From Hypholoma sublateritium FD-334 SS-4 (Eukaryota > Basidiomycota > Agaricomycetes > Agaricales > Strophariaceae), in contig KN817552.1 of assembly GCA_000827495.1 (NCBI GenBank), positions 278,265 through 342,264 of the forward strand: DNA of 64,000 nt, in the 5' to 3' direction. A program made the position numbers and the translations under genes. Of the stretch, positions 22,645 through 62,390 are shown piece after piece; position 1 is the first letter of the stretch, and the number at the start of each line of letters is the position of its first letter. Under the pieces are notes generated by a model. The model was not told the DNA's origin and did no database searches. It saw only the letters and a list, made by a program, of their open reading frames with translations.

Positions 22645-23404
22645 CACACCGGCGGCTCTTGAGTAAAAATGAGGTTTTTACATGTAATTTTTAGGATCAT
22701 ATATATTTGAACTGCCGACCGACATAAAAAGGAATAAAATATTTCAAATAGAAATGAAACTCATTAAGACATTTTTATAACTATTACAAATTAAACATAA
22801 AATGCGCTTTCTATATCAAATGTAAATATATTTTCTAAGGCGTTCGGCAGTTGATATATAAAAGACGAGAGAAATGAACTTTACATATCAAATAAAAATC
22901 TCCCTGTAAAAGGTCTTTCTAATTATAATCAAAAAGGGCCCGTAAATTTTATTTATATTTCAATTGTAAATCAAGCTAAAAATTTCCCTTATATTATCCC
23001 AAATATTTCTTATAGAAATATAATTTACATTGTGTCGCCCACTNGTCGCCCACTTGTCGCCCGCAACTCNCCCGGCCGAACGCCCGCCGACCGCCCGCTC
23101 ACGGTTCCCGCACCGCCCACCCACGGCACGTGATAATATAGGTAAGCACATGTGCTCGGCAGTGCGCTAGTGGGCGCTTCCTCGGCTGCGTGCAGGTGGG
23201 CGCCCTGCACCCGGCGGTCCGGGGTGTCTGCGCAAGCCGAGTGGCACGATCTTCGTGCTCGCGCTCTCGATTGGTGAGTTCTTCATTTGTGAATCTCAAT
23301 CAACTACGGGAGCTGATGCCTCGTCCATCAACTTTACAGGAAGTGTATACTATCTAATACATAGGCTCCGGATGCGTGGACGACATCGTTAATCGGCATA
23401 TTCT
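22645..23404 (+). repeat. Left terminal inverted repeat (760 bp)
   Basis: Positions here and in the right repeat sum to 85035 at every point compared, with no insertion or deletion. The match stops after GGCATATTCT at 23404. The outer 400 bases are AT-rich; the inner part is GC-rich with three near-copies of an 11-bp unit (gtcgcccactt) around 23034-23069. AACTGCCGA occurs twice in opposite orientation, near 22710 and 22850. N bases at 23044 and 23070 are mirrored in the other repeat. Short open frames here are probably not genes. Confidence 0.92.
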
Positions 23405-23867
23405 CGCGAACCTTCGAAGTTCATCCTCCCGACCAATTCCTCCATCCGATTCCTCCACTCGTAACCGGCACATTCGGGCGCATCACATCGCCACCGCCGT
23501 TGGGCTGCGCACACGTTGTCTACAATTCCGAGATGTCTACAAGGTATGTACTTGTCCCAGCGGGTGTCAAGCTCGCCAAAAAGGTCACACAAGGTACGTA
23601 CCATCGTGTCCTCATGTCGAATTCCCTTGACGACTTCGGGAGAACAAGCAGCTCTCGCGAGATCAAGCCACCAGCGCAGCGCCTATCTCGGGCCACGACG
23701 TCAATCCACCACAAGACGCCATCGCGGAGCCATCAGCGCCGGCGCACACCCATGACACAGCGCTGACTCCACCCTCAGCCCCGCTAGCTCGATAAACCGC
23801 CTACGACACTCCCCTAGCACAACAAGCCCGCAGAGGCGCACACCTGTAGGTTGGAGAAGGGCACAAA

Positions 23868-24248
23868 TAGCACGAGCAGCATGTAGCGCACGGTTGAGAC
23901 GTCCCCGCTGCTGCAGCATCGCATCGCGCATGGCGGAGATCAGCGCAGCGATCCTCGCACGCGACTTCGAGGCCTTCGCGCGTATACGATGGCGGACTCG
24001 AACCAGTTCCACGACTTCGCGCTGGACACGGAGCCGCCGATCTTCTACATAAACGACGTCTCGCGCATGATCGTCGTGCTCGTCGTCGAGGCCAAGATCC
24101 CAAAGGGTTTCAATGAGGCGGTGGCGAAGCTCTTCGAGGTCGGTGTGGTCAAGGGTTGATCCACACCCGTGTGGGTGAAGTACCCAGGAAGCTCAACAAC
24201 GAGGAGGGCCTGATTGCGGCCACCAATCTGCCGAAGACGTTAGCGTGA
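23868..24248 (+). pseudogene. MVD1: Mevalonate diphosphate decarboxylase (ERG19/MVD1) 3' fragment
   Basis: Pieces of the C-terminal half of the enzyme appear in order across shifting frames: RTVETSPLLQHRI, MAEISAAILARDFEAFARI, MADSNQFH followed by LDTEPPIFYINDVSR, PKGFNEAVAKLFEVGVVKG, and LIHTRVGEVPRKL to a TGA at 24246-24248. The codon expected to be Gln just before RTVETSP is TAG. A one-base deletion separates the ARI and MADSN blocks. The segment that should hold the YT.DAGPN active-site Asp is missing. The enzyme makes isopentenyl diphosphate for sterols; this copy cannot. It is GC-rich relative to its surroundings, as expected for a transplanted piece of a highly expressed gene. The functional gene should be elsewhere in the genome. 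Confidence 0.82.
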
Positions 24249-25980
24249 AGCTGTTCAAACTGAATCAATCTCGCTGAAGGGCTGTATATGCCGTTCCCGC
24301 CCTCATCCCACTCCCACTGCTTTCCAATGCGCATTCCGCTCTCTTCCTCGTCTTCAAGCAGCCATAATTTCACCACTTTGTCGCCAGTTTTTCGCGGAAA
24401 ATGAGCCCGTAAATGCATACGCCGAATTCACGCGCCCAAACTCTTTGGTCCTTTTAGACAGTCGATATGGGATGTTGCACCGTATATTGTCGCGCGCCGT
24501 CCGCACCCTTGAAGTGGACTACAGCCAAATAATGATACATTATATCTGTGTTCGCAGCATTAACCCGTCACTCGTCTACACCTGACCACCCGCCACATTG
24601 TAGAGGCGATTTCCCATGGCTACAGGAAACATTAGATCAAGATCTCAGATAGTCAATAAAAGAGCCCATGTACGTACCAGAAACAATATATAACAGTTGT
24701 GTGCGTTCCATCTTGGCTCCGCGATGGATATTCGTACACAAACAGTCTCGGGTGTTCAGAATGCACAACTTGTGCCGTTGTTGTGCAGTCATCTTCACAA
24801 ATGTGCAGAGAAATGGAGTGAGAGTTGCTGGCGTTGTACATACGAATCGTCCAGTGGTCTCTTGGATGGTCGTCTGTCGAATGGAGGTCTGCACTGTGGA
24901 AGAGTGGTCGTACGATGGATCCCTATGTTTAGACACTGAAGCTATACATAAACACTGCCTTGTACTGGCCAAATCTTTCATTGGGCTCCTCCAGCTCCTC
25001 TCGCAGGAGATCTTGATTATCATGGATGGCCAACACAATCATGGGACGCACACGCTGTCGGACGCGAAGGTGGCCAATACATTCTGCGGAGATGTGTCGA
25101 CAGAAATGATTAGATTTATAGTAGAGTTTCAGAGAGTCGTATAAGACGTTGAATGTCTCATACATTAGGGATAAGCTGAGCGTAGAGATGAGGGTAGACG
25201 TGAGCTAATGTCAAAAGCACATGGTCGACTCGCTCGCCGTCATCATCACTGGTGGGCATCCACTTGTGAACGTGCTCCGCCGCCACCGCCTTCCGGCGCT
25301 CGTGGCGCGCATCCTCATACTTCTTATACGCCATAATGGAGGATACAACGCGCGTTGGCTTTCCCCAGAAAAAATACGGCTTTTCGAGATCCACCAAAAT
25401 GATTATATCACCGGGACACATAGCTGAACCAGATGTTGTCGCAGCATCCCCACCCAGACGTGTGTAATCTCACCCAGAATTGGAGCTTTAAATCCAATAA
25501 GTAGTCCGCCCGCTCCCACTCGCGTGCGGACAAACACGAAGGTGTGGAAAAAGTGTGAGAAGGCCAAGGTGGATAATCTGCTCATCGCTACAAATCGTCC
25601 CCGCGCAATCGAGGACACATCTTCATTCTGCAGTTTGGGCAGTCTCAGCAAGGGCGGGGGTCCAAAAAAGTCCCGGCGAATCAACCCATCGACATCCCTG
25701 GACATAATTGCAGATGACCTCCGGAACAATAGTCCGTGGAGTGACTTGGATAGCAGAACGCTTGGGTAGTAATCATGTCGGCGATCTGGAAAGTCATCAC
25801 GCAACGCATGATGGGCGACGTGAGCTGCAGAAGTTACCGTTCGATAGCATGCAGGATCAGATGTCATTTTCCTCCAGAGGACGTCGAGATATCGTTTTCC
25901 ATGCGGGGATGTTATGATTTGCAGGCAGTCTTGGATGCTTAACGTACTAACAAAGGCAACAGCAAAGAAAAAAACTCGGC
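24249..25980. other. Cargo DNA with unrecognised reading frames
   Basis: Minus-strand frames at 24637-25038, 25158-25421 and 25403-26000 look partly protein-like. The last contains RLPKLQNEDVSSIARGRF and several hydrophobic stretches. I do not recognise a family, and stops separate them. They lie directly downstream (leftwards) of a hairpin module and may be a decayed captured gene. Confidence 0.3.
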
Positions 25981-25989
25981 CGGAGAGGG

Positions 25990-26245
25990 ATGGCACTCGG
26001 GTTAAACTTGATGCATCCCGACGGTATCCTCGCAGTAGTAAATACAGGCGAGAAAAGAATGTAGGAGAGATCCCGAGGTTGATCTCGCTGTAGTAAATAC
26101 ATGCGAAACTCTGCCTAGTAGATTCTCGCCGTAGTGTATACAGGCGAAGATTGATGTCAACCCGGCTATATATCAAATGTAATACAATTCTAGTTGTGAG
26201 AAAGTTGTGAGAAAGCGTATATCTATTCGGGTTGAGCAAGACTTA
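25990..26245 (-). repeat. Hairpin-array module, copy A
   Basis: On the minus strand three imperfect hairpins occur in tandem about 50 bp apart (26124-26150, 26082-26106, 26028-26052). Each has a TCGCC/GGCGA-type stem around a TGTATTTACTAC-like loop. The flanking sequence (gatcaacctc-gg-atctctcct) matches copies C and E closely. Confidence 0.8.
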
Positions 26246-27285: not shown

Positions 27286-28139
27286 GTTTGATACTCTGGT
27301 ATTTGGCGGGATGACTATTCTCCGAAGGTGAATACATCTCTCTTATTTTCGATCCACCCTCCTTTATGATGTACATATTTTAGCATACCATACAGCGGAA
27401 AGCATTTTGAGGATGAATTTGAAATTGTATCGACAACAGATTTAGCTGGTGTGGGTCAGCTCGAAATGTCCCAAGCAAAATGGATTCTGTTCGCATTACT
27501 CACAGGCGGAGATTACGACGAAGGTGGTGTCCCAGGCTGCGGAATGGAGACAGCATACGGTCTCGCGAGATGTGGATTTGGCAATGATCTTGTTCACGCG
27601 ATACGCACAATCCAAAGTCAGCCAGTCCTCCAGAAATTCCTTTCCAATTGGCGCGAATCCATCAAACGAGAACTTTCTCAAGGTTTTTTGCCGCATCGCC
27701 AACCAGCCGTAGCAAATCGCATCTCAGATCAATTTCCGGATCTGCGTGTCCTACAATTTTACCTTAACCCCCTCACTTCGAATCCGGACACCGTTCAGAA
27801 AGACTGGCTAATCAAGCAGCCTTTACTTCACAATCTCGCTGAATTCTGTTCGGAGAGATTCGAGTGGAGTGACGAGCAGATCTTGAAAAAGAAGTTCAAG
27901 AATGGGATCTGGGAAGGTGCACTTCTTCAAATGTTGTTCTCGGTGAGTATACAATTAGTTTCAGAGTATGTAACTTAAACATCGTCTGATTTTTACGGAT
28001 CACAGGCGTCGTTGATGTGCCAGTCCTCGGTCTGCGCACACGTGGATAGTCGACTCGCACGCATTGACGAGCGAGAGCGCGAGGTGCTATCAACGAGTGG
28101 GCCCGGGGCTGAAGCCGAGGCGACGGGGAACAATGGGGT
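27286..28139 (+). pseudogene. XPG/GEN1-like structure-specific nuclease, internal fragment
   Basis: An exon reading FDTLVFGGMTILR (the end of the XPG-I domain, normally DxDxxxFG) splices to IPYSGKHFEDEFEIV and to LEMSQAKWILFALLTGGDYD. The last leads to GGVPGCGMETAYGLARCGFG, the helix-hairpin-helix DNA-binding segment of RAD2-family nucleases. The C-terminal part FCSERFEWSDEQILKKKFKN is typical of agaricomycete GEN1/Yen1-like proteins. After LLQMLFS an intron leads to ASLMCQSSVCAHVDSRLA and the frame then degrades. The N-terminal XPG-N domain and most metal-binding acids of XPG-N/XPG-I are absent upstream, so it is not a working nuclease. Some exon joins remain clean, so it was captured as genomic DNA with introns. 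Confidence 0.78.
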
Positions 28140-28649: not shown

Positions 28650-29275
28650 GGTGATCTTTGCTGCATGCCATGCCCGAGTCCGTGTCGGCCTTCATGGGCG
28701 TCAAAGCAGCGGGGGAAGGGAAGAGGTTGGCAATGGGTGGCCTGCGATTTTTCTCTCGCATCCTTGAGGTGTGTTTGCTATATATCATTCGTGCAAGTCC
28801 TTGTTACTAATTTACTCATTCTTTAGAATGACTTTCCCAATGATAACCCCAATTTGCTTGCTCAAGCATTATCATTAGCCAAAGTTTTACAGGTCACTGC
28901 TGCAGACCAACATGAAACCTGGTATACGGCAAATGCCACCATCCTTAAAAACTTGTTCGCAAAGGGCTATTGGCGGACGATCATTCTTTGAACGAAACTC
29001 TTCAACCAGTCTTTGATCAACTTATCGCCCTCTACTCTCTGCCAAAGGAAGAGGAAGAACAACATGCAGAATTATCCGATTTCCACAGTTATGTATACTC
29101 ATCGATTGGAGAGGGTCTGCGCAATTCAAGTTCACTACCTGGCATTCTTGGCGTGCTGAAGTCTGTTGTCCGTGTTGCGCCTGAGCGCATTGAGCCTTTC
29201 AGCCAGCCTCTCATGAAATTACTGAGAAAACTCACCAAGGAACATATACATTCATCCCCGACGACCCCTGGACAT
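28650..29275 (+). pseudogene. TRA1-like (SAGA/NuA4 PIKK-family) helical-repeat fragment
   Basis: An exon reading AAMPESVSAFMGVKAAGEGK and ending FFSRILE at 28768 splices over a 58-nt intron to NDFPNDNPNLLAQALSLAKV, with VTAADQHETWYTANATI downstream and then FAKGYWR. After a frameshift near 28968 the protein continues DDHSLNETLQPVFDQLIALY, LSDFHSYVYSSIGEGLRN, VAPERIEPFSQPLMKLL and LTKEHIHSSPTTPG. The content and order fit the HEAT-repeat region of basidiomycete Tra1, a very large co-activator scaffold. This is recall-based and should be tested by search. Only a few percent of a Tra1 gene is present and the frame is broken, so it is a captured fragment. Confidence 0.6.
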
Positions 29276-29900
29276 GAAACCAAGAGCACGAAACTTCGGG
29301 GTACTCCGATTGGGGAGGTCTCCACTAGGAAACGTACGACCGCACGGCGGCGACGCGCATTGTGAAGGGGAAAGTAATAAAAAAAAGCGAGCAGATACAG
29401 TGATCCCTACGGGCACAGGTGCGTGGCCGCGCGAGGTCGGTGTGGATCGAGTTGTGTGGAAAATGGGAACGGCCTCGGCGCGGCGGCGCTTATGGCCGCG
29501 GGGAGGGCATCCGGGGCCCGGGCTCTGTCGTGTTGACGTGCTGTGGGCCCGCTGGCTCAAGAGCCCATACGGTGGCGTAGCGTGCGTGCGCATGGAGGAC
29601 GGCGACGCGATGGAGGTTGACACGGAGCTGTCCGATGAGGATTCGGAGAGCGCGTAGATGGAATGGCTCCCTAATAGGACTCGGAACGGGGTGCGCACGC
29701 GCGAGCTCGTATTAATTCTTATCCGTTGTTATTTCAATGTTTACTGGGTAGAGGCAAGGGAAGCGGCGGGTAACTCAACTTCAATGACAATCAAAACCAC
29801 AAGCAAATTTGAGTAATCCTCCAACATATAGATGCACAAAGGTATGTGTAAGTAATTACTATACAAAGCGGGCAGCCTGGACAAGAACGGTCAACAAAGA
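29276..29900. other. Cargo DNA, unrecognised GC-rich frame
   Basis: A plus-strand frame (29274-29657) ends in an acidic stretch (DGDAMEVDTELSDEDSESA). Such tails occur in nuclear proteins and could belong to the degraded GEN1-like tail. The opposite strand is also open, so coding status is unclear. Confidence 0.3.
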
Positions 29901-29934
29901 AAGTCAGCATCTAACTGTTCCGCGATGCAGGCGT

Positions 29935-30140
29935 TCTCAGTGCTGTGTCCCCTCATTCATTGTCGTCATAGATGGATTGGATGAGTACGCGAGGAAAAAC
30001 TTCCAGATACAAATAATAGATCTCATTGACAATTCCATTGTTGTTATCCACTCTGCGGACAGACCATCATCGGCTGGTATTCGCTATTTGGGCGACGGTG
30101 TTTTGATCCTTTTGCGGAGAAGTTGGATACCTGCGTAGAT
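29935..30140 (+). pseudogene. NACHT NTPase fragment (NLR-like)
   Basis: The frame contains FIVVIDGLDEYARKNFQIQI followed by IDLIDNSIVV. This is a Walker B hhhhDGLDE motif and the helix after it, as in fungal NACHT proteins. No Walker A motif or repeat domain is recognisable around it. It is short and isolated, so it is treated as a remnant. Confidence 0.5.
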
Positions 30141-30600
30141 AGACCTGTACAAGCCTTTCTTATTGTGCCGAGAAAAGTAGCGGATGGTTGAAAAGCTCAC
30201 AAATCAAGGAAATTATTCTCTGGCATGCACCAAGCTACTTGAGGCTGAAGTTTGAGCGAAGTGTTCCCAATTTGCAGCATCAAACATTCCTTATATGAGT
30301 ATCAGTCGGTATGGCAGTCATATCCATAAGATGGCCACTGAGTACTAAATTTTCATACCTTGCTCTACTATTCCTGGCCACATGTGCATATGTATGTTCT
30401 CATCGTCGATGAACATGCCGTTTTGAAGGTGCTCCAGCGGCCTATCCTGCTTAGCCCATGCGTAGTAATTGCCACTCACATAGGCTGTCGACGCAAGCAT
30501 CCCACATTGCGAAACTGAAGGAGGCTGAGACTGGAATCTGATACTAGGGTGTGGGCTTGTACTACCAGCGTATAGAGTGGTCGTCGACTGTGATTCATGA
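30141..30600. other. Cargo DNA, nothing recognised
   Basis: Stops in all frames; no repeat noted. Confidence 0.35.
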
Positions 30601-30606
30601 TGGTGC

Positions 30607-31336
30607 TCAGTGTGTCTCTAGGGAAAGTAAGTAGGTATCAGTATCAGATCTAATGCAAGTGATGGGTACAATAAGCTGAGATACCTGTTCAACCCACACT
30701 GGGGTTGAGATTTCGTCTGTACTGAGTGGTCTGGGATCAGGGATTCGGGTGTTTGAGCTGTGGATGATAGTATGATCTTGATTGTTCGCGGAAACGTTCG
30801 GCTCTTGGTTTGACTCCAGCAGAGGCATATTCAACTCTGGTACAGTGCCGACTGATTGGATCGAAGTCATAGTAGACCGCTGAAAGCTTCAGGTACAATA
30901 AGTATAAGAAACTGAGTACATAGTCTGACACAAGAGGTGGAGCCACAAACTTTAAAACAGATATGAGGCTCTGTATTTCGGACAATTTTTTTTCAATTAT
31001 TGCTTGAGTGTTCGCGACGTCAGTAATGCAGTCTTCAATATTGTTTAGGCTCCTGTCATATATATAAATATCGGAGATGATAGTGCTATAACTTGAGCTC
31101 ACCTAACAATATCAGTTGATTGCTTGGAGGATGTCGGCTTTTCGAATATACACTCCAGTCCCACTTTCTTGCAGCGTCGGCAAGGAGGGCTTTCAGAATC
31201 ATCACAGCGTATTTTCTGCTTCCGACACTCCCTCTGTGATTTCATTTCATTTTAAAAAAGTGGCTGAAATGCAAGAAAATATGGTAACCCACACAAGAAC
31301 CTTACGCAGAAATCAAGCAGAGAATGAGTACTGACT
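30607..31336 (-). CDS. Zn2Cys6 transcription factor, possibly incomplete
   Basis: On the minus strand an exon ending in DFC is followed by a phase-0 intron and an exon reading RECRKQKIRC, then seven residues, then CRRCKKVGLEC. Together they give C-x2-C-x6-C-x7-C-x2-C-x6-C, the fungal binuclear zinc cluster. A linker with TSSKQSTDIV follows, then a coiled-coil-like dimerisation helix (TDVANTQAIIEKKLSEIQSL). Downstream exons encode Ser/Asn/Pro-rich sequence. No fungal-specific middle homology region was recognised before the sequence becomes unclear near 30600, and the true start codon was not found, so it may be a captured 5' part. These proteins bind CGG-type DNA repeats as dimers; no target is inferred. 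Confidence 0.6.
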
Positions 31337-32490
31337 AACTATGAAATGAAGAATTTTTTAGATCTAGACATACGAGGTCCTCTGGTCAAAGTCTTGTGCA
31401 CGAGTGTATCTATTCTCTTTGCCTTTAACGTTACAGTTTTCATTGTGTGATGAGTTGGTGATGAAAGCACTGTGGTGAACAAGGGGCAGTGGACGGCAAG
31501 GACGCTGAACGGGGGGGGGGGGAAGGAATGAACACTTACTTACTTGCCAGTGGGGCAACTTGTGATCTGTGCAGGGTTCAGTCGCCGTTACATACCGTAA
31601 CATACACTGTCTATCTAGTCTTCCATATTTTACAGATAATCTATTGGCAAATTAAAATATTAGAGGGACTCGTCGACTCTGTCAAGCGTCACGGTCTCAT
31701 CTTGATTTCTTCAAACCTACTTTATCCATACGTGGGTCTCAAACTCGGTTCTCATGTTGTCAAAGCATCAAATGGCCGGGTCATTTAGATCATACAGTGT
31801 CATATAATCAAGCAATAATCAAGGCACGAAGTACATGCGGCAAGCAAGCGGCAAGGCCTGCCAAAAGAGAGTGGTTCCTCCGGATCGTTTTAATCCGAAA
31901 ATCAAGATCAAAATATTGACAGACTTGGTGAAAAAAAACTAAAGAACAAATAGCATAGTATAGTCCGTCGCCGCAAGGTGTTGCACGATTTTATCCTTAT
32001 TCCATGGCTCGAAAACGCTGGACACCGTGAGCATTGAGGGGCCCGGGATATTAATGACGATTCCCCGACTGCATCCAGATTTTACGGTTTCTAGGGCGGA
32101 TTTTCAAAACCTTGGCTGTGTAAGCAAGGTCCCCACGAACGCCGGCTTCCACCTGGACAGATACGCCCCTTGTCCAGAGCTATCTCCAGCCCTCTTTGGG
32201 CTCGCAGTGTAGGTCGACCAGCCACTTCTTGCCTGCCTTACCTTCGTGCTATTCAAATGTGGATTGTCGCAATCGTGAGGAGGAATGCCGGATGACACGC
32301 CGACTCAAACAGCTAGCTACCTAAGTCTCAGATGCTATTCAGACGTTGCGACTGAAGATTTGAAGACACGCTTACAAGCGCCTTCGCCGCACGGCTTGAA
32401 GCTTCACGCGTCATACGCGTCGTAAAGAGACTCGAGCGGCGAAAACGCCAGTACTCCAGTGGTCATCGCCGCCTGTTATGAATTGATTAG
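31337..32490. other. Cargo DNA, nothing recognised
   Basis: Includes a G-run near 31512 and short open frames on both strands (for example 32027-32212) without domains. Confidence 0.35.
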
Positions 32491-32505: not shown

Positions 32506-32860
32506 TCATGCGTTCAAACTGCACGAAATCACCAAGCTATAGGGATTACCTTGTCGGGTACCGAAAAAAGACACATCTCGGGCAAGCGCCACAAGCAGCA
32601 TACACCCCATGAAGAGCATAATCAATATACGGTACTCCGTGAACACGTCGTCCAAAAGACGGTCCGTCCCGCGCTTGAGTGGGATCAATGCGAGCATGTA
32701 ACAAAAAGTGCAAAACGGCAACAAGATGACAAGCGTGCGGATCCACACCGTATTCAATACAGGGGGGGTTCGACTCGCAACTGTTTTCTCGCAGAGTCTG
32801 CACCAAAACAAAGTCAGAGGGCTTCAAGTAGTGTATCCATAATGGACATACCTTTCTTGT
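32506..32860 (-). pseudogene. Membrane-protein fragment joined to hairpin module B
   Basis: The minus strand reads SRTPPVLNTVWIRTLVILLP, with CYMLALIPLKRGTDRLLDDV, EYRILIMLFMGCMLL and DVSFFGTRQ downstream. This gives two or three hydrophobic helices with a charged loop. The first part (PPVLNTVWIR) is also present upstream of the Tnp2-type transposase at 52165-52200, in the same relation to the hairpin array. It is therefore either a gene fragment carried by the repeat family or part of the repeat itself. No complete gene is visible. Confidence 0.45.
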
Positions 32861-33720
32861 TTATTTTGCGGTGGTTTGGACGCAGCTGAGTTCTTGCTGT
32901 ATAACTACACGCGCAAACCGGACGTGAAGCTAAAGAATTTCCTCGTAGTGATCGATATAAGCAAATATGAAGGCTGATCTCGCTGTAGTAAATACAAGCG
33001 AATCGCGACATACTTCAAAATGCCTAAATCTTCGTCGTAGTAGATACAGGCGAAGATTGGTGACGTTTACTCGGCTGTATGTTAGATCTGAAATAATTCG
33101 CGTTGTAAGACGGTGTAAAACCATCCAGGTTGAGCTGCAGAAGTACTGACCTCTGTTGAAACATTGAAGAGCGACTGGAAATACTCCCAGTCGTCGACTC
33201 AGACAATCCAGGGGGGCTGTGCACTGTGTGAAAACAACAAGACAATGCCAAATAAAACAATTGCTCCGGTTGTCCGTCCACTCTGAGTCCCGACTCGTCA
33301 CTCGACAGCAACTCGACAGAGTAGTGAATTTTTCGTGAATTCTACTTGGATGCTCTAAGTAAGGTTCTGCTCATCCAATGCGACATCCTTCTTTATCTGC
33401 ATCTCCGAACCTGGCTCAGGCTCTCTGGCTGGACTTCGCTGGATTGATTCAACGAGGCGGCTACGTCGGCGCGGACAATCAATATCCCTCCGAGTCAAGG
33501 CTCACTAGCACTACGCATGTACGAGTAACGAACTACACATACCTTCGCTGGATTGATCCAAGAGGCTTCCAACTCGGTTTGGACAAGTTGCTACCCTCCA
33601 GCCTCGCCTCTAAAATGATGTTGCATTCCATGTTTTGACCTACCAAAAATGCCCGCCTTCGTTGGATTGATATTACGAGGCTGGTCACTTGGCACGGAAG
33701 GGATACCTCTCTCCTCTGCA
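32861..33720 (-). repeat. Hairpin-array module, copy B
   Basis: This is the reverse complement of the 51000-52150 region. It carries hairpins at 33031-33056 and 32978-33002 and a decayed one near 32940. It also has the gagcatccaagtagaattc and gactcagagtggacggacaa segments, and three copies of cgctggattgat with ACGAGGC-like ends near 33440, 33550 and 33665. Together with copy D it defines a module of at least 1.2 kb. Confidence 0.8.
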
Positions 33721-34154
33721 GGGATGACTCGGGGAGACAGGTTTCTTGAAATCTTACGAGGGAATCTCACTGAATGATTATGCACCAGGAACGAGAGCTT
33801 CCTCAAACTCCGCTCTCAGAACGTCATCTCTATCGGCGAAAGTAAAATACGTGATTCACCTGTCGAAAAGTTATGCACCATAGCACATCCGGCCGCCCCG
33901 TCTGTTCAAGCCACACAAATTTTAGGAACACTCGGACACAATTTTGCGCGAGTATATATTTTGCACGAGTATATACCTCGCAGGCATTCGCTATGGTGAG
34001 GGTATTCTCCCAGTTCTTCGCTGGATGCAAATAGGGTTCGCAACGCAGCAACTACGAGTAACTCGACATAAAGCGACTAAATTTTGGGTACCTACGAAGT
34101 CATACGGGTACAGCTCTATTCTTACGGTGTATCAAACCCCCAAACCCCTCAATC
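33721..34154. other. Cargo DNA, nothing recognised
   Basis: Contains a short direct repeat (gcgagtatatattttgcacgagtatata) near 33950-33975. No gene seen. Confidence 0.35.
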
Positions 34155-45420: not shown

Positions 45421-45625
45421 ATAAGAGGCAGGCAGAATGTGAATGTGGAGGATTGTCGTCGGCAGAAAAAGCACATCCGACCAGTGAAGCTCTGTAGATA
45501 AAGAGGCGAGAGGATGAAAGAAAAGCAGGGTCGAGGAGCGGTATATATGAAATAGCCGAGAAGCCAGTCGGTCCGGTACCACCTGGCACAGACAAAGGGC
45601 AAGGTACTCCTGCAACCACCAGGTC

Positions 45626-52332: not shown

Positions 52333-55300
52333 ATGCCAGCCCGATCTCAGCCACCCTTCCACTGTTTATGTAACTTCTGCGCCGCCGAGGGCGGCCTCAA
52401 CCCAGATAACACAGTTCGGGGTCGATACTTCCCAGCAACTCATCGTGTCGCCCATCTGAATTCTATTCAATCCCGGGCCATGGATCAACCAACCTCTGCC
52501 CTATCCGGACAAGCGGCTTCTGGATCAACCACGGGGGGGGACTCGATTGGTTCGGACATCCATGACGCTGCAGTCAGCTCCGACGTGGGGAGCGCAGCAG
52601 TCAGCTCGGCGATCCAGGACGACTCAATCAGCTCAGAAATGCAGGACATTATGATGAGCTCAGACATACAGGACGCTTTTGGCTCAATGACTCTTATGAC
52701 ACATCCACCGTCATCTCGTGTTGGGCGCGCTACTGCTAAAAGAGAGGCCCATCGTTTGACCGTCAAATCTCATGCAGTACTTGATCTTGTAGAAAAGCAG
52801 GCTGTCGAATATCTTCAGCGGTTGAAGGATCCTAAATTTAGCCCTGAACAGGTCCCCGCTTTGATAGTGGAGATTGGTCATATACAAAAAGCCTTCGACA
52901 GAGTCAAACGTACGGTTGATTCTGTTGTTGACCGAAAATCGGTAATTGGAAAGTCCATCCAAAACCTTCAAGTCGCTCTTGCAGCGCGTCAAGAAGAATA
53001 TGACAAACATCAGAACCTCCAACCTTTACAATTCAATTCTGGTAAGCTGAACAACATTTCCTTCATTGAACTTGCCAACCTAATGTTTACTATTTTAGAT
53101 GGTCATTTTGCACTTCCTATTGATGCATTTGATCCAATCGCTCAAATTACTATGTTAATTGTGGTTGTTTGCAGTGTTTTGGCGGGTATCAGCCGCCGGA
53201 TGGGAAATCTTGTCTTAGGACTTCTATCCCTGCTCTTGCATAAATCTTTCAGTAACCCGCCAGATGGTAAACATGATTTCAGGCAGTCGCAAATCCTTGC
53301 ACAGATTCCTACCACCGTAGAAACCATATTGAAGAAATTTAACCTGGAGGGTAAAACAACAACATATGCTGTCTGCCCACAATGCCACCATACATATGCT
53401 CCCAAATTCAACGCTGGTTCTCGTCAAGCCACATATCCTAAGGAGTGTACAAACCGTTTGCATCCTTCAGATACTTCTACTTGTGATACAAAGCTGCTCC
53501 GAACCGACCTTGACGATGATGATCAGCAACCTATACTGAAAACATATATTTACAATGAATTTCACAACTATGTAGCTGGCTTATTATCACGTAAAGATCT
53601 GGAAGATTCCATTGATTCAGCTTGCGATAAGGCAATGGACTTGATCAATAGTGGTGAAAGCCCTTCAGTCATTGAGACTATTTTTCAGGCTGACTTTGTC
53701 CGCGAGTTCAAGGGCCCAGACAAGGAAAAACTATTTGTTAATAGGCCAGAAAAAGAAGCTCGGCTGATTTTCGTGTTCAATGTTGATTTTTTCAGTGCAG
53801 AGGGTCAAACAATTCATGGTCCCACTGCTTCATGTGGTCTTATCAGTGCAGCTTGCTTGAATCTTCCAGTGGAAAAACGTTACAAAAGCGAGAATATGTA
53901 TGTTGCTGGTGTCATACCAGGCCCCAAAAGCCCTTCTGGAACTGCCCTCAATCACTATATGCGCCCTCTCATTGATGACCTTCTAGTTTCATGGGAACGA
54001 GGTGTTTTTTACTCTCGAACTGCCAATCATCCTCAAGGCCAAAGTGCTCGATCTGCCGCCTGTGTATGGGCAAATGATCTTCCTGCAGCACGTCATGTTA
54101 GCCAGTGTGCATCATCCACCTCCCATCACTACTGCAGCAGGTGCTCTTGTTATGGGGTTTCTACCTTAGGCCGCACTGATGTTACATCACCGGACTGGAC
54201 TCCAAAGGATGCAAATAAGCTCAGACGATTAGCGGAAGCTTGGCGTACAGCTCCTACAGAATATGAACGGTCTCAAATATTTACAAACAGCGGTATGCGC
54301 TGGTCAGAACTGTGGCGATTGCCATACTGGGATCCTTCTCGTATGTTGGCTGTAGATGCAATGCACTGTCTCTTAGAAGGTCTTGCCCAGTTTCATTTTC
54401 GCACTGTACTGGGTCTAACAGAGGTTGGAGTCACTGCCGCCACCACCAAAGCTGCAGCACCATACAAATTCAAATTCCCTCTACCAACCACAGAATATGT
54501 CGCCACCCATTTCTCAAAAGGCCAAGAAGATTACAAAGAGACAATTTCTGTTCACAAAGTTCTGCTCAAATCTGTTGGAAAATTTGGTGACAACATCGCG
54601 GATGACATCATTTCCCTCAATACCCTAGCAACACAGCTTGCGAAGAAAAAGAAACCGGTTCTTGCTTTTATAATGCAAAGCCTGGGTATTCATTACAACT
54701 CTGAAATGAACAAAAATGATTGTGGTAGGGCACTGTCAAGATGGGTGAGCACAATTCTAAGTCTAAATATATTGTTTAGTGTCTGACTTTGTTGATCAAA
54801 GCGTGCAAAACATCCATTACGGCTTCCGGAAAGTATGGCAGCTATTCATGGAACTCCGGCAGTGCTTCATCGTATTCGGGAGGTCATCAATGACATGGAC
54901 ACACCGTCGTGGCTGCCTTCTGTTCCGCGTAACTATGGATTTGCAGCAGCCGGAGTCCTCAAAGCAGATGAATGGCGAACATTATCCACAGTTTATTTTC
55001 CTATCGCCCTTGTCAGTATGTGGGGCGAAGGGTCAGAACATCGCTCCGAGGCACTCTCAAGGTCCGCACGTAGGGTCCTAGATCACACCATGTCGCTTGT
55101 GTGTGCAATTTCTTTGGCCTGCACACGCACAACAACTGTGGCCAGGACAGAGGCTTACCGGAGTCTGATCTTGTCGTGGCTGTCCCAACTAAAGACTGTC
55201 CATTCGGATCCCGATATCACCTACAAGAGCAATGGACATATGGCAGTCCATATCTATGACTATCTCCGACTTTTTGGTCCTGTGAGGTCATGGTGGTGCT

Positions 55301-56045
55301 TCCCATTTGAACGTCTGATCGGACAAATGCAGCGTTTCAATCATAATCATAAATTTGGTAAGCAGAACACTGTCTTTCGGAATTTCATTCTAATCATTAC
55401 TACTCAGGCGAATTGGAATCTACGATGATGCATGTTCACATCAAAAAAAGCAAGATAAAGCAATGGCTTTCCCACCCCGAATGTCCTGCTTTCATAAAGC
55501 AGTGCAAAAATATATTCGATAAAGCTCTCGGGACTGTAGAAGAAGAAAAGACGCCAGCTAAATCTGCATTCATATCGACTCCTCGGGATTTGAGGTCTCT
55601 TCTTCCTGACACCACAATTGCCCTTCTCGCAAGGCATGCCATTGGAGAACTGATGTTTTCCCGCCGCAGCACGCATGTTGGAAATAGTCTCATTTTATAC
55701 TACCCAGGTGGTCGGAAAGATTTGCCCGCCGCACCAGGTTCTATTGAATACATTATAGCCCGAAAGAATCAGCCAACCGTATTTGCAGTTCGTCAGCAGC
55801 TGCCCGCGCCACCTGGTACAATCGACCCATTCAGGCCCTATGCACACTTTCATGCGTCAGTTTGCTCGGCTACCCTTTCTCCGGATCTGATTTTGGTGCC
55901 CCTGGATTGGGTCAAATCACATTATGGGTGTTGGAAAATGAATGACAAAGTAGTTGCAGTTTTACCGCTAGTTCGAGTAAGTCAGTCTTTCTTCCTTGTG
56001 CTTGGCTCTTATTTTCTTATTCGCTTTCAATTTCAGGGGGGCTAA
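52333..56045 (+). mobile_element. Tnp2-type (CACTA-like, Plavaka-related) transposase gene
   Basis: Three or four exons. The ATG at 52333 (MPARSQPPFHCLCNFC) is preferred over the one at 52147, because the latter's first 60 residues belong to the upstream repeat. A Cys-rich N-terminus and a helical middle (VEKQAVEYLQRLKD, VSTLGRTDVTSPDWTPKDAN) lead to the core block LRRLAEAWRTAPTEYERSQI, GMRWSELWRLPYWDPSRMLA and VDAMHCLLEGLAQFHFR. An intron then leads to HPLRLPESMAAIHGTPAVLH, then LSTVYFPIALVSMWGEG, HMAVHIYDYLRLFGPVRSWW and PFERLIGQMQRFNHNHKFG. A further exon ends VVAVLPLVR, and a last tiny exon stops at 56045. The DPSRM...D.MH.LLEG motif is typical of Tnp2-type transposases. No stop interrupts the model, so it could be active. 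Confidence 0.85.
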
Positions 56046-56119
56046 CATCAACTAGATACAATATCCAGGCGTCGCTTTTATGTAGCGTAGCCTTTCAATG
56101 TAGGTAGGGACATGCTTAC

Positions 56120-57800
56120 CTGAAGCTCGGCTTGTAGGATGTAGATTGCGTCAGTTTCTTTTTGTCTTCCTGCAGGTGCGTTTCAAGTTTCTGGATGCGA
56201 TCGCGGACCGCCTGGTGCGTTGTAATCAGACACAAAAGGGTAGGTGCAATAAATTAATACAAACATACTCTGATACTTTTGCGCGAGTGCGTCTGTGTTT
56301 CGCTGTATTCCGGTCCCAAAGTTCTTGAGCGGAGCATTTTCGCAAATTCTTTATCATTTTTTGCTTTATTAAACCGCACAATCTCCTCTCGTCTAGTTCC
56401 AGCTTTTTTGTCCCTCTCTGTCTCTTTGGGATTCCAAAACACGAAGATCATCCCCATATTGCAGCAAGACGCGCCCGGATTGCTCGACGTCAACAAGGGC
56501 CCATTTTTCAAGCTGGGATAAGCCAGCCTTCATGCGTGAGCCGCCCTTGGATATCTTGGGCTCTGCCTTGCATTTTCTATTGTCAAGTTTGCCAGCTGTG
56601 ATAGAAAGTAGATAACGGTCAGCCTAATAACAAATAAAAGGTGTATTTGCCACGTACCGAACGCAATTCATTTTGTGCATGTAGGGCGAGCGAGACGCAT
56701 TCCTTCTGCAACCCATCCTCAAGGGCAGTGGCGGACTCCTGGCTTCAGCCAGATGTGGACGCCAGAGCAGGCGACTTTGCTGGATCTTTCGCTTCGTCGC
56801 CACCAGTCTTCAACATATCCGCGAAAGACGTCTTTATTCCAACGTACGACGAGAAATTGCTTGATGCGCCGCTGAACGCACTGAATCCGCCGCTCGTTGG
56901 TGGCTTGCTCGGCGTCGTCGTAGACGGCGTCACTGGCGCGAAGACAGACTTAGGTCCTCCCAAAGCGGATGTCGATCCAAAGGTCGGCGCAGCAGCGGTG
57001 GAATTTGTCGGCGTCTTTGGTGAGCTTGTAAGGGCGAATGCAGACGCTGGTGGCGGGGTTTCGTCTGGCTTTTTGAATAACGGCCACGCGCTGGGGGCAC
57101 CAAAGCTGCCGAAGGCCCCAAATCCACTGGCCGGGTTGAAGGAAGAAGACGTGGAATGCAGCCCGCTGAATGCATTGGGTGCGGACGAAGGCGTGGTCGA
57201 AAAAGCAGGGAAAGAAGGAGGCGGTGATCTTTCAGGCTCGGGTGACGATGGCGAGGAATCGTCGCGTTCAGGGCTCTCTTTGTCGTTAGAACCAATTCCG
57301 TCAACGGTTGGTGGGATGTGTTTGTGCGGTGTAGACTTATTTGTCAAAGAAAATGTCAGAATATCGCCAGTCTGAAGACCTATGGCCAGGTGTTTGCCCT
57401 TCGGCGACCATGAAACTATTACAAACGTCAGGGAATATAACGTGGATATAAATCATGCCGACCTACCAGCAATGGTTTGGGACATAAGAAAACCACTAAC
57501 TAGTTCTGCTGGATTTCGGCATCGTGTTAACGGTAAACTTTGGTAGATAGCTTCCGACATCGGAGCTTCCAAATATTTCATAGATGGACGGAGGTGCGTC
57601 CTAACGCGGTCTGCAGCTGTAATGTGAAGGACGGCTCAATGATTGATATACTACAAGAGACAAGCCAACTCCACGTACGCAGTCCCGACAAGCCATCCAG
57701 ACGTTCCGGCATAGCAGGAATGATAGTGGAAAGCGGCATGAGGTCTTTCGTCAGTCTTCGTTGGGTCGTGAAACGCGGAGAAGATTAATAGGGTGAAGCT
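56120..57800 (-). pseudogene. NUP159: Nucleoporin NUP159-like fragment
   Basis: Minus-strand exons give NPAELVSGFLMSQTIA, then VSWSPKGKHLAIGLQTGDIL, the last blades of the N-terminal propeller. A Pro/Ser-rich region with FG-type repeats follows (SGFGAFGSFGAPSAWPLF, APTFGSTSALGG, GFSAFSGASSNFSSYVG). A later piece reads FNKAKNDKEFAKMLRSRTLG, then PEYSETQTH and AVRDRIQKLETHLQEDKKKL. The order propeller, FG repeats, coiled-coil helix fits the cytoplasmic mRNA-export nucleoporin Nup159/Nup214. Upstream exons towards 57800 are decayed and the start is missing. The 3' end breaks off inside an intron whose donor is at 56114-56119, right behind the transposase stop. Only a middle fraction of the gene is present, so it is a captured fragment. 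Confidence 0.75.
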
Positions 57801-59940
57801 GCACGAAAATCTGTATGCGGCCCCCTTTAAGCATGCAGTGAACGCGAGGGCGGATAGCTGAGCATACCTCGTCCCATGTTCAGCATGTCATTCTTCCTCG
57901 AGCGTTCCGCAAATCCCACAGATGTCTTGGGAGTCCACGTTCTGCTTTCCTGGATTTGGCTTTCTTTTCTTCGCTCGTTTATTTTCTGCAAAAAGTTCGT
58001 CCATGGTAGAGTCCTTCTCAGTGAAATTAATGTGGTTCGTATCTTCATCTTGAATCGATCATCTTGCGCTCATGCTTGGAAGGGAAGGCAATATGTTGGT
58101 GGTGTATGCTGCACCTTCAGCGTGATGTGTTCCAGCTGGAATTTGATATATTCCAGTGTGTGTGTGTGTGGTGGTGGGGGGGGGGCTTCGTCGCCTACGG
58201 ATTCATGCCTGCAGCCGTGTGCAGCGCGCCCGGTCATAATGCTATGAGGTCGGCGCACATCAGCGCGCTGCGGACGGTTATATGGCGAAGTAGGAGCATC
58301 GAAGGAGAGCGCGAGGGGGTGGAAGGCGGGCTTAGGGCCGAGGGAGATGGCAGGATATCTGCAGTGTGCGAGGTAGTGTGTCGAATGGAGGAGAATACGT
58401 AAGATGGTAGGGGATACGGCAGGGACCATATAGAGGTGGCGTTTGGTGCTGCGATGGTTGCAGGGTCTTCGGCGAGAGGATGACGCGCAGTGACGACGCG
58501 CGCGCGGTGTGGTTGGGACTTTCAGCCAGCTGTCTCATGGAGGCTTGTGTTTGAGGCGTACACCCCCCGTCTTCTCGTATCTCGCTTTCCGGGGTGTCTG
58601 GAGTCTGGACTCCTGAATGGACGCTCCTTCGAACGATTCGGGCTGCGAATGAAGTCATCGACCTGTACAGCATAGACGTCAGTCGAGGCCTGGCAGAGAA
58701 ACAGCTCGTGAAGTACAGTACCCCAGGGAATGCTAGTTTGAGGGCGCTTTTCGGTGAAGCTATTCTTCGCGATTGATCTTGAACGCTGACCGCTAAATAA
58801 TGGTATGTAGCAACATACTGCAGTCCAGGAGAGAGGACGAGTGGAGAAATCGTCGTTCATCGATCAGGGGCAGTGTCGCCTCTGACGCCACCACGGCCCG
58901 GCCGTTCGGCTTGACTTACACCTACCTTACACCGTGACATCCTCTTCTTTGAATTTACTGTACTGCTATTCTTACCTCCCTGAAGAATCCGCGACTCTGT
59001 TATACGAACTTATCGCGGGGAGCTCCAAGGCTTAGCATGTTCCTTGACTCAGTCATCATGATATCTGTTCCCGCATCTCTCCATTTTCGAAGAATTGAAG
59101 GAAGTTTTGTTTCATTCTCTTCGCCATTGCTACCTTCGGTGTTGTCCAGGACTTGAATGTGGAAACGGCTATTGCCAATGTCAGTCCTCATTTTGCCTAC
59201 CCAGCCATAACTATCATATTTATCTAAATTTTACAAGATTACTTCCCGTAATCCCGTGTCCTTCGTCCCGCGAGGGCTCCCCGACGAAGAAAAAATTTGC
59301 GCCTCTCAGCTTTCCGCGTTCACACTTCGGAGCTTGTTCCCTGCAACATCATCTCAGTGGCCGTGAAGGACAGAACACCCGCGCATTGCAGGTTGCTTTC
59401 GGCCCCTGTCGACTTCTGCTTGGTAAGAGTGTTTGCGTGCACAGATCTGTTGAATGCGTCCCTATCAATGCAACTCACAGCGCTGCTCGATGAGAACTAT
59501 CCACACCCGAAGGCCCCGAAGCCTCGAATGTACCTTTTCACCGCGGTCAAGCGTGTCGGCCAGGACACGAAATTACACCATTCCTCGTTTAAAGTACAGG
59601 TGTTCACAATCGCTCAGCTGACTATAGTGCTCAAGCCATTGGAAGTGCGTCGACTGTACAACTGTCTGTATTATTCATGCTTACGAAAGATTGTTTTCAG
59701 GGGGTTTGTGTATAGTTTTTATGATGCAAGATAGGCCAAACCAAAATCGACCTCTATGGGATTACGGTCCCGGCCTCTAATTTTCAGATTGGAGATGGTA
59801 CTGCCACGCACTATGTGGTTATTGTCTGGAGCATTATAAACCTATCTACTACTTATCTACGGGGAGAGGTTAGTCGCATTTTCGAGTTGCTGTTGCATTA
59901 CTCTCTCTGATTCTTGTCATAGGCTGGCTTTGCACAGGCA
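57801..59940. other. Cargo DNA with unrecognised reading frames
   Basis: Includes a GT-rich microsatellite near 58155-58187 (tgtgtgtgtg then ggtggtgg and a G run). Frames at 58594-58776 and 59297-59734 look partly protein-like (TPEWTLLRTIRAANEVIDLY; MQLTALLDENYPHPKAPKPR), but no family was recognised and stops interrupt them. Confidence 0.3.
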
Positions 59941-59959: not shown

Positions 59960-60150
59960 TACGTCTTCGCCTGTATTTGATACGGCGAGGGTTTACTAGG
60001 CATAAACTTGCTTGCAATTACTACAGTGAGATCAGCCAGAAGATCTCTCCAGCGCTCCTTCTCGCCCGTATTTACTACCGCGAGGATGTTGTCATCCTCA
60101 CATCAAATTTATGCTGTATTCACTACCGCACCATCTCGATGAAGTACACG
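59960..60150 (+). repeat. Hairpin-array module, copy E
   Basis: Plus-strand copy with four degenerate hairpins (near 59964, 60010, 60058 and 60110). It shares gagatcagcc, gatctctcc and the TGTATTTACTAC loops with the other copies. Reading frames of unknown identity follow downstream at 60370-60930. Confidence 0.75.
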
Positions 60151-60930: not shown

Positions 60931-61068
60931 TTCTATTCCTTCCTGTAATGCTTTGCTCTGAAGTGATCGTCCCAATTGTTCCTTCCGCACCTTTACAGGG
61001 ATTAGCTGTCTTCTCATTTGTGCACGTCTTCCAGCTCTCTGCAATACGTACCCCATTTTATGTCCTAA

Positions 61069-61329
61069 TTATTGTCGGAAATCAATCCAAAAAATAACGA
61101 TGCTTGAACACCGACCCTGACCCTGCTCGTGGCAGAACCTGCAAGTGGCGGAAAGTGTGCCTTTTTGATGACACCCAGTCGCCGTGGTCTCGCTAACTGC
61201 ATCCCATTCCCAGTGATAGGTGTGGCCGGCTCCGTGTAGCGCATATCCTGGGTGATTTTGAAGTCCTTGCGTGCGCTTCGCGAATGAGCACCACGTACAT
61301 TCAACTGGAGATAAACGCGACGTGATCAC
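61069..61329 (-). CDS. Small Cys/His-rich reading frame, hypothetical
   Basis: The frame contains CTWC, HPGYALHGAGHTYHWEWD, a CH pair and CRFCHEQGQGRC, so paired Cys and His residues could bind zinc. The HTYHWEWD block looks protein-like. A second overlapping frame on the same strand starts at 61304, so coding status is not certain. No family recognised. Confidence 0.3.
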   Translation of the reverse strand: MITSRLSPVECTWCSFAKRTQGLQNHPGYALHGAGHTYHWEWDAVSETTATGCHQKGTLSATCRFCHEQGQGRCSSIVIFWIDFRQ

Positions 61330-61630
61330 CTGCTCACCGACTCCAAATTAAACAAAACACAGTATATTATCTACATAGTATTAAACAAAATATAGTACTC
61401 TAATCTTATTACCTTGCTGAGATACCCCGCGACCACAGCGAGCATTATGCAGCGCATCCGCGCTGCGGTGTATCGCACACGGCACCGTTTCCGCTAAAAA
61501 CAACCACAGAATCACGTTCGCTAGCGTTAGTGCCATATTCGGGTGCTTATTAACACCCGGAATACGGGCCCGTAGCTAGAAACGGGGCAGTCAGCACAAT
61601 TCTGCAAAGCGTTATCGCATACCAGATATT
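61330..61630. other. Spacer before the right terminal repeat
   Basis: Contains short inverted motifs (cgcatccgcgctgcggtg; ttcgggtgcttattaacacccggaata near 61540-61565). The latter can fold with CGGGTG/CACCCG arms. No gene. Confidence 0.4.
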
Positions 61631-62390
61631 AGAATATGCCGATTAACGATGTCGTCCACGCATCCGGAGCCTATGTATTAGATAGTATACACTTCCTGTA
61701 AAGTTGATGGACGAGGCATCAGCTCCCGTAGTTGATTGAGATTCACAAATGAAGAACTCACCAATCGAGAGCGCGAGCACGAAGATCGTGCCACTCGGCT
61801 TGCGCAGACACCCCGGACCGCCGGGTGCAGGGCGCCCACCTGCACGCAGCCGAGGAAGCGCCCACTAGCGCACTGCCGAGCACATGTGCTTACCTATATT
61901 ATCACGTGCCGTGGGTGGGCGGTGCGGGAACCGTGAGCGGGCGGTCGGCGGGCGTTCGGCCGGGNGAGTTGCGGGCGACAAGTGGGCGACNAGTGGGCGA
62001 CACAATGTAAATTATATTTCTATAAGAAATATTTGGGATAATATAAGGGAAATTTTTAGCTTGATTTACAATTGAAATATAAATAAAATTTACGGGCCCT
62101 TTTTGATTATAATTAGAAAGACCTTTTACAGGGAGATTTTTATTTGATATGTAAAGTTCATTTCTCTCGTCTTTTATATATCAACTGCCGAACGCCTTAG
62201 AAAATATATTTACATTTGATATAGAAAGCGCATTTTATGTTTAATTTGTAATAGTTATAAAAATGTCTTAATGAGTTTCATTTCTATTTGAAATATTTTA
62301 TTCCTTTTTATGTCGGTCGGCAGTTCAAATATATATGATCCTAAAAATTACATGTAAAAACCTCATTTTTACTCAAGAGCCGCCGGTGTG
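61631..62390 (-). repeat. Right terminal inverted repeat (760 bp)
   Basis: Mirror of 22645-23404 without any length difference; inner edge at 61631, outer edge CCGCCGGTGTG at 62390. N bases at 61965 and 61991 match those of the left copy. Confidence 0.92.

What the first reader, a model, noticed from the sequence alone, without database searches (positions are those of the whole stretch)
22645..62390. A 39.7-kb TIR element precisely splits a gene
Mirror-image 760-bp terminal repeats, a TAA duplication and a UstYa-like gene whose halves fit at both borders define a very large DNA transposon-like element. Its size, long TIRs, 3-bp duplication and CACACCGG ends do not match the textbook giant elements I know (Polintons, Starships, Teratorn). 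It may be a new class of gene-carrying element in basidiomycetes.
Basis: partly seen in the sequence, partly recalled or inferred. Interest (0 to 1): 0.92.

Follow-up and report, generated by a model that had tools for sequence, protein, structure and literature searches.

The report
Giant gene-capturing CACTA-type fungal transposon
A 40-kb jumping gene that cuts a fungal gene in two looks like an unusually large relative of the plant CACTA transposons, carrying its own gene set plus scraps of several host genes, which makes it an unusual giant element worth following up.

Summary
A 39,746-bp element (22645-62390) has 760-bp terminal inverted repeats, identical apart from two mirrored N positions per arm, and a TAA duplication. 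It splits a UstYa-like gene; a paralogous locus elsewhere in the genome is uninterrupted. It carries a tnp2-type (Transposase_21) DDE transposase, CAC...GTG ends and a 3-bp duplication, the features given for fungal EnSpm/CACTA (PMC12730594, passages). Plavaka was tested and not met. Unusual: (1) size and long TIRs; (2) a four-gene core (transposase, S protein, WD40-like, 942-aa protein) recurring in the same order at three diverged loci of this genome; (3) a 22-bp palindrome in five arrays, with all 13 genomic sites of at most 2 mismatches inside the element; (4) patchwork capture of host gene pieces (Tra1, nucleoporin-like, NACHT-type and others), four nucleoporin-like pieces being joined without shared bases. 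Captured Tra1 and nucleoporin-like pieces differ from the host genes disproportionately at silent sites yet are broken, suggesting capture from a diverged lineage. A second copy of the ends, the ends of relatives, and activity could not be shown.

The parts
22642..22644 (.). left target-site duplication TAA
   Evidence: sequence
62391..62393 (.). right target-site duplication TAA
   Evidence: sequence
22645..23404 (+). left terminal inverted repeat, 760 bp, begins CACACCGGCGG; the outer 376 bp are 27% G+C with short A+T-rich repeats at spacings such as 36 and 72 bp, the inner part 58% G+C
61631..62390 (-). right terminal inverted repeat, ends CCGCCGGTGTG
22118..22638 (+). left piece of the interrupted UstYa-like gene (no Pfam match of its own)
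   Evidence: 75% to C136:11298-11837
62394..62604 (+). right piece of the interrupted UstYa-like gene
   Evidence: PF11807 E 3.6e-10; 82% to C136:11840-12031
52111..56042 (+). transposase gene: ORF 52111-54783 (Transposase_21), 54796-55425 (weak DUF4218, below cut-off) and 55362-56042; conserved D559, D656, C675xxC678, M751-H752, and a PFER motif in the second ORF; a plausible GT...AG intron at 55358-55407
45551..50716 (+). S-protein gene region (conserved exon 50264-50713), upstream of the transposase on the same strand; 45551-50263 is assigned by position only
   Evidence: 12 places in the genome, window included; 7 of 12 within 10 kb of a transposase hit
41944..42749 (-). WD40-like protein (ORF 41944-42291: weak Pfam matches, all below cut-off; 42411-42749: no match, assigned by position)
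   Evidence: relatives
37170..39995 (-). 942-aa open frame of unknown function
   Evidence: no Pfam match
26030..26147 (+). palindrome array, 3 sites of TCGCNGTAGTAAATACNNGCGA
32980..33053 (+). palindrome array, 2 sites
40074..40198 (+). palindrome array, 3 sites, just upstream of the 942-aa frame
51874..52020 (-). palindrome array, 3 sites, just upstream of the transposase
59967..60083 (-). palindrome array, 2 sites
32689..33745 (-). copy of the region upstream of the transposase (75% to 51182-52235, inverted)
51182..52235 (+). region upstream of the transposase, partner of the 75% inverted repeat
27290..27968 (+). captured piece, 79% to C36:23361-24044 (looks like an XPG/FEN-type nuclease; name from recall, no Pfam match)
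28738..29283 (+). captured piece of Tra1, 94.5% to C1:1627574-1628120, with a 1-base frameshift
29322..29863 (.). captured piece, 80% to C79:20771-21281 (gene unknown)
29904..30050 (+). captured piece of a NACHT/NPHP3_N-type gene, 85% to C79:23346-23486, inverted relative to the neighbouring C79 piece
30372..31844 (-). Zn(2)Cys(6) transcription-factor gene pieces, four stretches 67-88% to C29; old capture or distant relative
32119..32443 (.). two adjoining stretches 80-81% to C100:118314-118702 (repeated sequence, other weaker matches)
40824..41114 (+). three stretches 73-87% to C20:248261-248821
35901..36802 (+). PTPLA (3-hydroxyacyl-CoA dehydratase-type) gene or piece; residues 54-145 of the ORF are 51% like the one other place found in the genome (C6)
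56084..57489 (-). four pieces (93-96%) of one nucleoporin-like gene region on C60, joined end to end without shared bases
57493..59462 (.). stretches 70-83% to C44:282652-284967 (repeated gene family of unknown name)

Best explanation
A large cut-and-paste DNA transposon of the EnSpm/CACTA superfamily, apparently with its own intact transposase. The tnp2-type DDE transposase would recognise the CACACCGG ends, cut the element out, and join it to a staggered cut that leaves a 3-bp duplication (here TAA, inside a UstYa-like gene). The A+T-rich subterminal repeats, and possibly the palindrome arrays, would be docking sites for an element-encoded DNA-binding partner, as TNPA is in plant CACTA; the S protein or the 942-aa protein are the candidates. 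The two arrays upstream of the transposase and of the 942-aa gene suggest common control of element genes. During its history it picked up pieces of several host genes at DNA level. Shown: ends, duplication, interrupted gene with a paralogous uninterrupted locus, transposase domain and conserved residues, four-gene core repeated in the genome, captured pieces. Inferred: activity, recognition of the ends by this transposase, role of the arrays and of the S, WD40-like and 942-aa proteins, capture mechanism.
For: TIR, TAA and paralogous empty site. Transposase_21 E 2.5e-8, 33.8 bits against a cut-off of 28.6; D559, D656, C675xxC678 and M751-H752 invariant with P0001-P0004. In own-genome relatives the second D and CxxC stand in all printed rows, with single exceptions at the first D (L020) and at MH (L005); FER of the PFER motif stands in 20 of 20 printed rows (18 distinct loci), the full PFER in 15 of 20; one more locus, L017, has no row because its match ends before the motif. 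Fungal EnSpm described by CAC..GTG and 3-bp TSD (PMC12730594, passages). Core order 942 / WD40-like / S / transposase at C164, C158 and C61 as well as in the window. Co-location against uniform placing, window included: S within 10 kb of a transposase hit 7 of 12 (0.14 expected), WD40-like within 10 kb of S 7 of 17 (0.09), 942 family within 15 kb of a transposase hit 9 of 44 (0.74). Palindrome: 13 of 13 sites with at most 2 mismatches in the 46-Mb genome lie inside the element; mean 0.00 in 100 shuffles of the window. Captured pieces. A relative of the transposase (84% over 63% of the query) and one of the 942-aa frame (77% over 59%) both come from a record of 148,859 bases, presumably the same contig.
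Against: No second copy of the ends was found, so borders rest on one insertion. Ends of relatives could not be defined: no matching CAC...GTG TIR with a 3-bp TSD in 8.5 kb around the second C178 copy, where 1.5 kb on either side at most was tested, and no clear TIR in 9.9 kb around C215. The transposase frame is split over ORFs and its first splice site is not pinned. The second ORF's DUF4218 match is below the curated cut-off (20.4 against 27 bits). CACTA TIRs are usually short (13 bp in soybean Tgmt, PMC2613891, passages); 760 bp is unusual. TAA would also suit PIF/Harbinger (recalled), though no such transposase was found in 50 of the 62 element ORFs of 110 aa or more. The 942 family also sits near Plavaka-type transposases (15 of 44 within 15 kb, 2.38 expected), so it is not specific to this transposase.
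Confidence: 0.85

Rival explanations
1. A smaller core CACTA element lies inside a larger unit: the 760-bp TIRs belong to another, non-autonomous or unrelated transposon that swallowed the core and the gene pieces, and are moved by a transposase from elsewhere.
For: The core (37-56 kb) is flanked on both sides by captured pieces; the transposase's own relatives have no demonstrable long TIR in the stretches seen; a 75% inverted repeat lies at 32689-33745 and 51182-52235.
Against: CAC...GTG ends and a 3-bp TSD are what this transposase type would give (PMC12730594). No other transposase was found in the 50 of 62 ORFs scanned. The palindrome arrays occur both inside the core and outside it, towards both ends, tying the parts together.
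Confidence: 0.12
2. A PIF/Harbinger-type or other 3-bp-TSD element with a CACTA nested inside.
For: TAA fits the TWA duplication of PIF/Harbinger (recalled).
Against: No Harbinger transposase in the 50 of 62 ORFs scanned; ends read CAC...GTG; the CACTA-type first frame is open over 891 aa and has an 84% relative elsewhere.
Confidence: 0.03
3. Captured pieces were copied from this very genome and then decayed, rather than coming from a diverged lineage.
For: For the Tra1 and nucleoporin-like pieces the only match listed outside the window is one locus of the genome each. The three stretches measured vary (replacement-to-silent ratio 0.18, 0.07, 0.37), and at an expected ratio of 0.4 the test is not significant (P = 0.052).
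Against: Together they show 26 silent and 18 replacement differences over 263 and 781 sites, fewer replacements than an unconstrained copy branch would give (P = 0.009 for an expected ratio of 0.5), although the copies carry a frameshift and a stop.
Confidence: 0.25
4. Assembly artefact: a false inverted join at the TIRs.
For: Assembly of 281 contigs; mirrored N positions in both TIRs; the right flank is only 1.6 kb before the contig ends.
Against: Both flanks continue one and the same paralogous locus in order and orientation, which a false join would hardly give.
Confidence: 0.03

Closest known systems
EnSpm/CACTA (CMC) transposons, fungal EnSpm of Kojima 2025 (PMC12730594, passages seen)
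   Same: Transposase_21-type DDE transposase, CAC..GTG ends, 3-bp TSD
   Different: 39.7 kb, 760-bp TIRs, four-gene core, palindrome arrays, captured host gene pieces
Large plant CACTA: soybean Tgmt 20.5 kb (PMC2613891, passages seen) and Tgm-Express with gene fragments (PMC1947982, search listing only)
   Same: Tgmt: insertion in a gene, 3-bp TSD, structured subterminal repeats, large size; Tgm-Express: gene-fragment capture
   Different: 13-bp TIRs in Tgmt; other host kingdom; S/WD40-like/942-aa partners not mentioned in the passages seen
Chondrus crispus EnSpm of 16-20 kb with 4-5 ORFs (cited in PMC6431247, passages seen)
   Same: enlarged EnSpm with several genes
   Different: half the size; gene content not compared here
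Pack-CACTA / Pack-TYPE elements of plants (PMC8903248, passages seen)
   Same: pieces of several host loci between CACTA-type ends
   Different: those are non-autonomous; this one carries a transposase
Plavaka
   Same: CMC-type relative common in this genome (144 PF18759 matches), also found near 942-family genes
   Different: the window transposase is not among the matches; ends are not TGT or CATCA
Starships (reported also in Tremella, PMC13066641, passages seen)
   Same: giant cargo-carrying fungal element
   Different: tyrosine recombinase captain; none found in the ORFs scanned

Membership tests
EnSpm/CACTA | Transposase_21 (tnp2) transposase | tested here: met
   33.8 bits, cut-off 28.6
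[quoted passage not shown]
   D559, D656, C675xxC678 invariant with P0001-P0004; FER in the second ORF in 20 of 20 printed rows; assignment as catalytic is by position and recall
EnSpm/CACTA | ends CAC...GTG | tested here: met
   CACACCGG...CCGGTGTG
EnSpm/CACTA | 3-bp target-site duplication | tested here: met
   TAA, one insertion, with paralogous empty site
EnSpm/CACTA | subterminal repeat arrays bound by a partner protein | tested here: inconclusive
   A+T-rich repeats inside the TIRs and internal palindromes; binding not testable
EnSpm/CACTA | same ends in other copies | tested here: inconclusive
   no other copy of these ends; ends of relatives not defined
Plavaka | PF18759 match | tested here: not met
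   144 genome matches (123 of 149 candidates scored), none at the window's transposase; none for its first two ORFs at E up to 10
Plavaka | TGT..ACA or CATCA..TGATG ends | tested here: not met
   ends are CACACCGG (definition PMC12730594)
Starship | tyrosine-recombinase captain near one end | tested here: not met
   no such Pfam match in 50 of 62 ORFs of 110 aa or more; an intron-split gene could be missed
Polinton/Maverick | protein-primed DNA polymerase B, retroviral-type integrase, capsid | tested here: not met
   none in the same 50 of 62 ORFs; TSD 3 bp, not 6 (6 bp recalled)
Pack-TYPE | host gene pieces between TIRs | tested here: met
Pack-TYPE | non-autonomous (no transposase) | tested here: not met
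   own transposase frame

The most novel reading that the evidence does not exclude
A lineage of giant, self-contained basidiomycete CMC transposons with a conserved four-gene core and its own regulatory palindrome, moving between diverged strains or species and carrying pieces of former hosts' genes: a cut-and-paste counterpart of Starships.
Probability: 0.3. Interest if true: 0.82.

Novelty: new variant of a known kind. Interest (0 to 1): 0.62.

Why it matters
If right, DDE cut-and-paste transposons in fungi can reach about 40 kb with several conserved accessory genes, a size usually linked to Starships or virus-derived elements. The captured pieces may record where the element has been, and the four-gene core and palindrome arrays make the roles of accessory proteins in giant transposons directly testable. 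It also suggests that the 942-aa family, without a Pfam match, travels with CMC transposases.

Tried and rejected
A structure prediction of the 942-aa frame with six sequences gave mean pLDDT 42 and was not used for fold searches. TIR searches around relatives found no convincing ends; one search did show CACACCGGC in two relatives' loci or donor loci (L007; L028/L029/L067, one place), but with other flanks and no mirror partner looked for, L007's lying within its transposase gene, so I took them as chance. A viral-contig scan (transposase) and a prokaryotic genome-contig scan (942-aa frame), both by short peptide patterns, found no relatives. A protein search with the PTPLA frame found nothing at E 0.001, so PTPLA could not be used to ask whether the cargo is shared with the 148,859-base record. 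Polinton, Starship and Plavaka were considered and set aside. Spliced-out introns as a cause of the joined C60 pieces were considered and rejected: the removed stretches lack GT...AG limits and two of the three lie inside one open frame. The two larger gaps (1500 and 2019 bp) are both multiples of three, a 1-in-9 chance, left unexplained; the third (80 bp) is not. Seven paper searches showed no fungal CACTA of this size in the titles and abstract starts listed; lists were capped (for example 20 of 130, 12 of 311) and the library is open-licence only, so this is no proof of absence.
Full report
Observation. The window is G000:C35:278265-342264, the end of a contig in a 46.1-Mb assembly of 281 contigs. 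Ns stand at mirrored places of both arms (23044/61991 and 23070/61965), so up to two differences between the arms may be hidden and the perfect identity is not a safe clock. The insertion is independently supported by a paralogue: C136:9580-12031 runs in parallel with window 20559-21575, 22118-22638 and 62390-62584 without any insert, and with a single TAA the lengths across the site agree (by eye). The right piece is UstYa (PF11807). The two pieces were not joined.

Transposase. ORF 52111-54783 hits Transposase_21 above the curated cut-off. The next ORF carries a weak DUF4218 match, below its cut-off, and a PFER motif. Aligned with four database relatives, D559, D656 and C675xxC678 are invariant. 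In own-genome relatives the second D and CxxC stand in all printed rows; the first D is replaced in L020 and the M of MH in L005; FER stands in 20 of 20 printed rows, PFER in 15 of 20 (18 distinct loci, one further locus, L017, without a row). The genome holds 29 matches to the first ORF, the window included. Plavaka (PF18759) gives 144 matches in the genome but none at this gene. Kojima 2025 (PMC12730594, passages) classes Puccinia elements with CAC..GTG ends and 3-bp duplications as EnSpm, and gives TGT..ACA or CATCA..TGATG for Plavaka. The element meets the EnSpm/CACTA features and not those of Plavaka. DeMarco et al. 2006 (PMC1636069, passages) had already placed fungal Transposase_21 sequences in the CACTA superfamily.

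A four-gene core. Three further products recur near such transposases. The S protein (exon 50264-50713) has 12 places in the genome, 7 of 12 within 10 kb of a transposase hit against 0.14 expected by uniform placing. The 942-aa family has 70 matches (48 of 109 candidates scored, so a lower bound), collapsed by hand to 44 places; 9 of 44 lie within 15 kb of a Transposase_21 hit (0.74 expected) and 15 of 44 within 15 kb of a Plavaka hit (2.38 expected), so it accompanies both kinds; 21 of 44 are within 15 kb of neither. The WD40-like frame has 17 places; 7 of 17 lie within 10 kb of S (0.09 expected). All these counts include the window. At C164, C158 and C61 the order transposase, S, WD40-like, 942 family recurs with nearly equal spacing (S to WD40-like 4.9-5.0 kb, WD40-like to 942 family 5.4-5.7 kb; in the window 8.4 and 3.5 kb), with the 942-family gene pointing away from the transposase as in the window. 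The WD40-like matches at these three loci are weak (E 1.0e-5 to 4.7e-5) and lie on the transposase's strand, whereas in the window the WD40-like gene is on the other strand. These loci are diverged (transposase 33-38% identical), so the core is old. Uniform placing ignores clustering of repeats, so the expectations are too low by an unknown factor; the repeated order is the stronger argument. A database relative of the transposase (84%) and one of the 942-aa frame (77%) both come from a record of 148,859 bases, probably one contig holding a related element.

Palindrome arrays. TCGCNGTAGTAAATACNNGCGA, an imperfect palindrome, occurs at 13 sites of at most 2 mismatches in five arrays, all inside the element; the genome has no other site of at most 2 mismatches, and its 9 further sites with 3 mismatches (one elsewhere on the same contig) are no more than the reversed control pattern gives (13 in all). 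One array lies just upstream of the transposase, one just upstream of the 942-aa frame; the other three lie near stretches without a recognised core gene. The transposase-side array is part of a 1.1-kb stretch repeated inverted at 32689-33745 (75%). In the C215 relative S and transposase hits are only about 240 bp apart, against 1.4 kb between the two ORFs here, so this spacer is extra. I read the arrays as docking sites for an element-encoded regulator; that is inference.

Captured pieces. 6.6 kb of the 39.7 kb, in 16 stretches after merging adjoining rows, matches other loci (summed): C36, C4, C1 (Tra1), C79 (two pieces, one inverted; one NACHT-type), C29 (Zn-cluster factor), C100, C20, C60 and C44. 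The case for capture is clearest for C1 and C60 (93-96%) and good for C36 and C79 (79-85%); C29, C100, C20 and C44 (67-88%, partly repeated families, partly very short stretches) and C4 (two stretches of 43 and 36 bp) may be old captures or just distant relatives. Putative introns are kept in the Tra1 piece, so capture was from DNA. The C60 part is four collinear pieces of one nucleoporin-like gene region (name by recall from its FG-rich sequence; no Pfam match), joined at three places with no shared base. In coding parts of the Tra1 and nucleoporin-like pieces I counted 26 silent and 18 replacement differences over 263 and 781 sites, a ratio near 0.22 (0.18, 0.07 and 0.37 in the three stretches). 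If the copy had been free to decay since leaving this genome's gene, about 0.5 or more would be expected (P = 0.009 at 0.5; 0.052 at 0.4). Yet the copies bear a frameshift (Tra1) and a stop (nucleoporin-like). The simplest reading is that they were captured from a diverged allele or species and broken later. High diversity within basidiomycete species (Tremella core chromosomes differ by 12-13% between haplotypes, PMC13066641, passage) means that this need not be interspecies transfer. Three stretches from two genes are a small basis.

How it probably works. Cut-and-paste by the DDE transposase at the CAC ends; subterminal repeats and perhaps the palindromes bound by S or the 942-aa protein; gene pieces gained in steps, possibly by the tandem insertion and re-mobilisation route proposed for Pack-CACTA (PMC8903248, passages). 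None of this was tested.

Limits. 

Noticed in passing
G000:C12, C211, C182, C9, C39, C62, C76, C234 and others: The 942-aa family also lies about 4-14 kb from Plavaka-type transposases at 15 of 44 places, suggesting that large multi-gene Plavaka elements may exist here too.
   Followed up: partly
window 15976-16377: Questin-oxidase-like gene (PF14027) in the left flank.
   Followed up: no
window 20559-21575 and C136:9580-10572 (L064): A gene with a weak, sub-cut-off But2 match, next to the UstYa-like gene, is duplicated together with it: the two form a paralogous block.
   Followed up: no
window 35901-36802: A second PTPLA copy, 51% like the one other place found in the genome, inside the element; possibly a whole cargo gene.
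   Followed up: partly
C55:2618-3250 and C163:2618-3250; C129:102074-103075 and C183:50743-51744: Pairs of contigs give matches with identical scores, hinting at duplicated or haplotype contigs in the assembly.
   Followed up: no
window 14059-14425 and 63035-63836: Scattered single Ns (4 and 6), perhaps conflicting reads in these stretches too.
   Followed up: no
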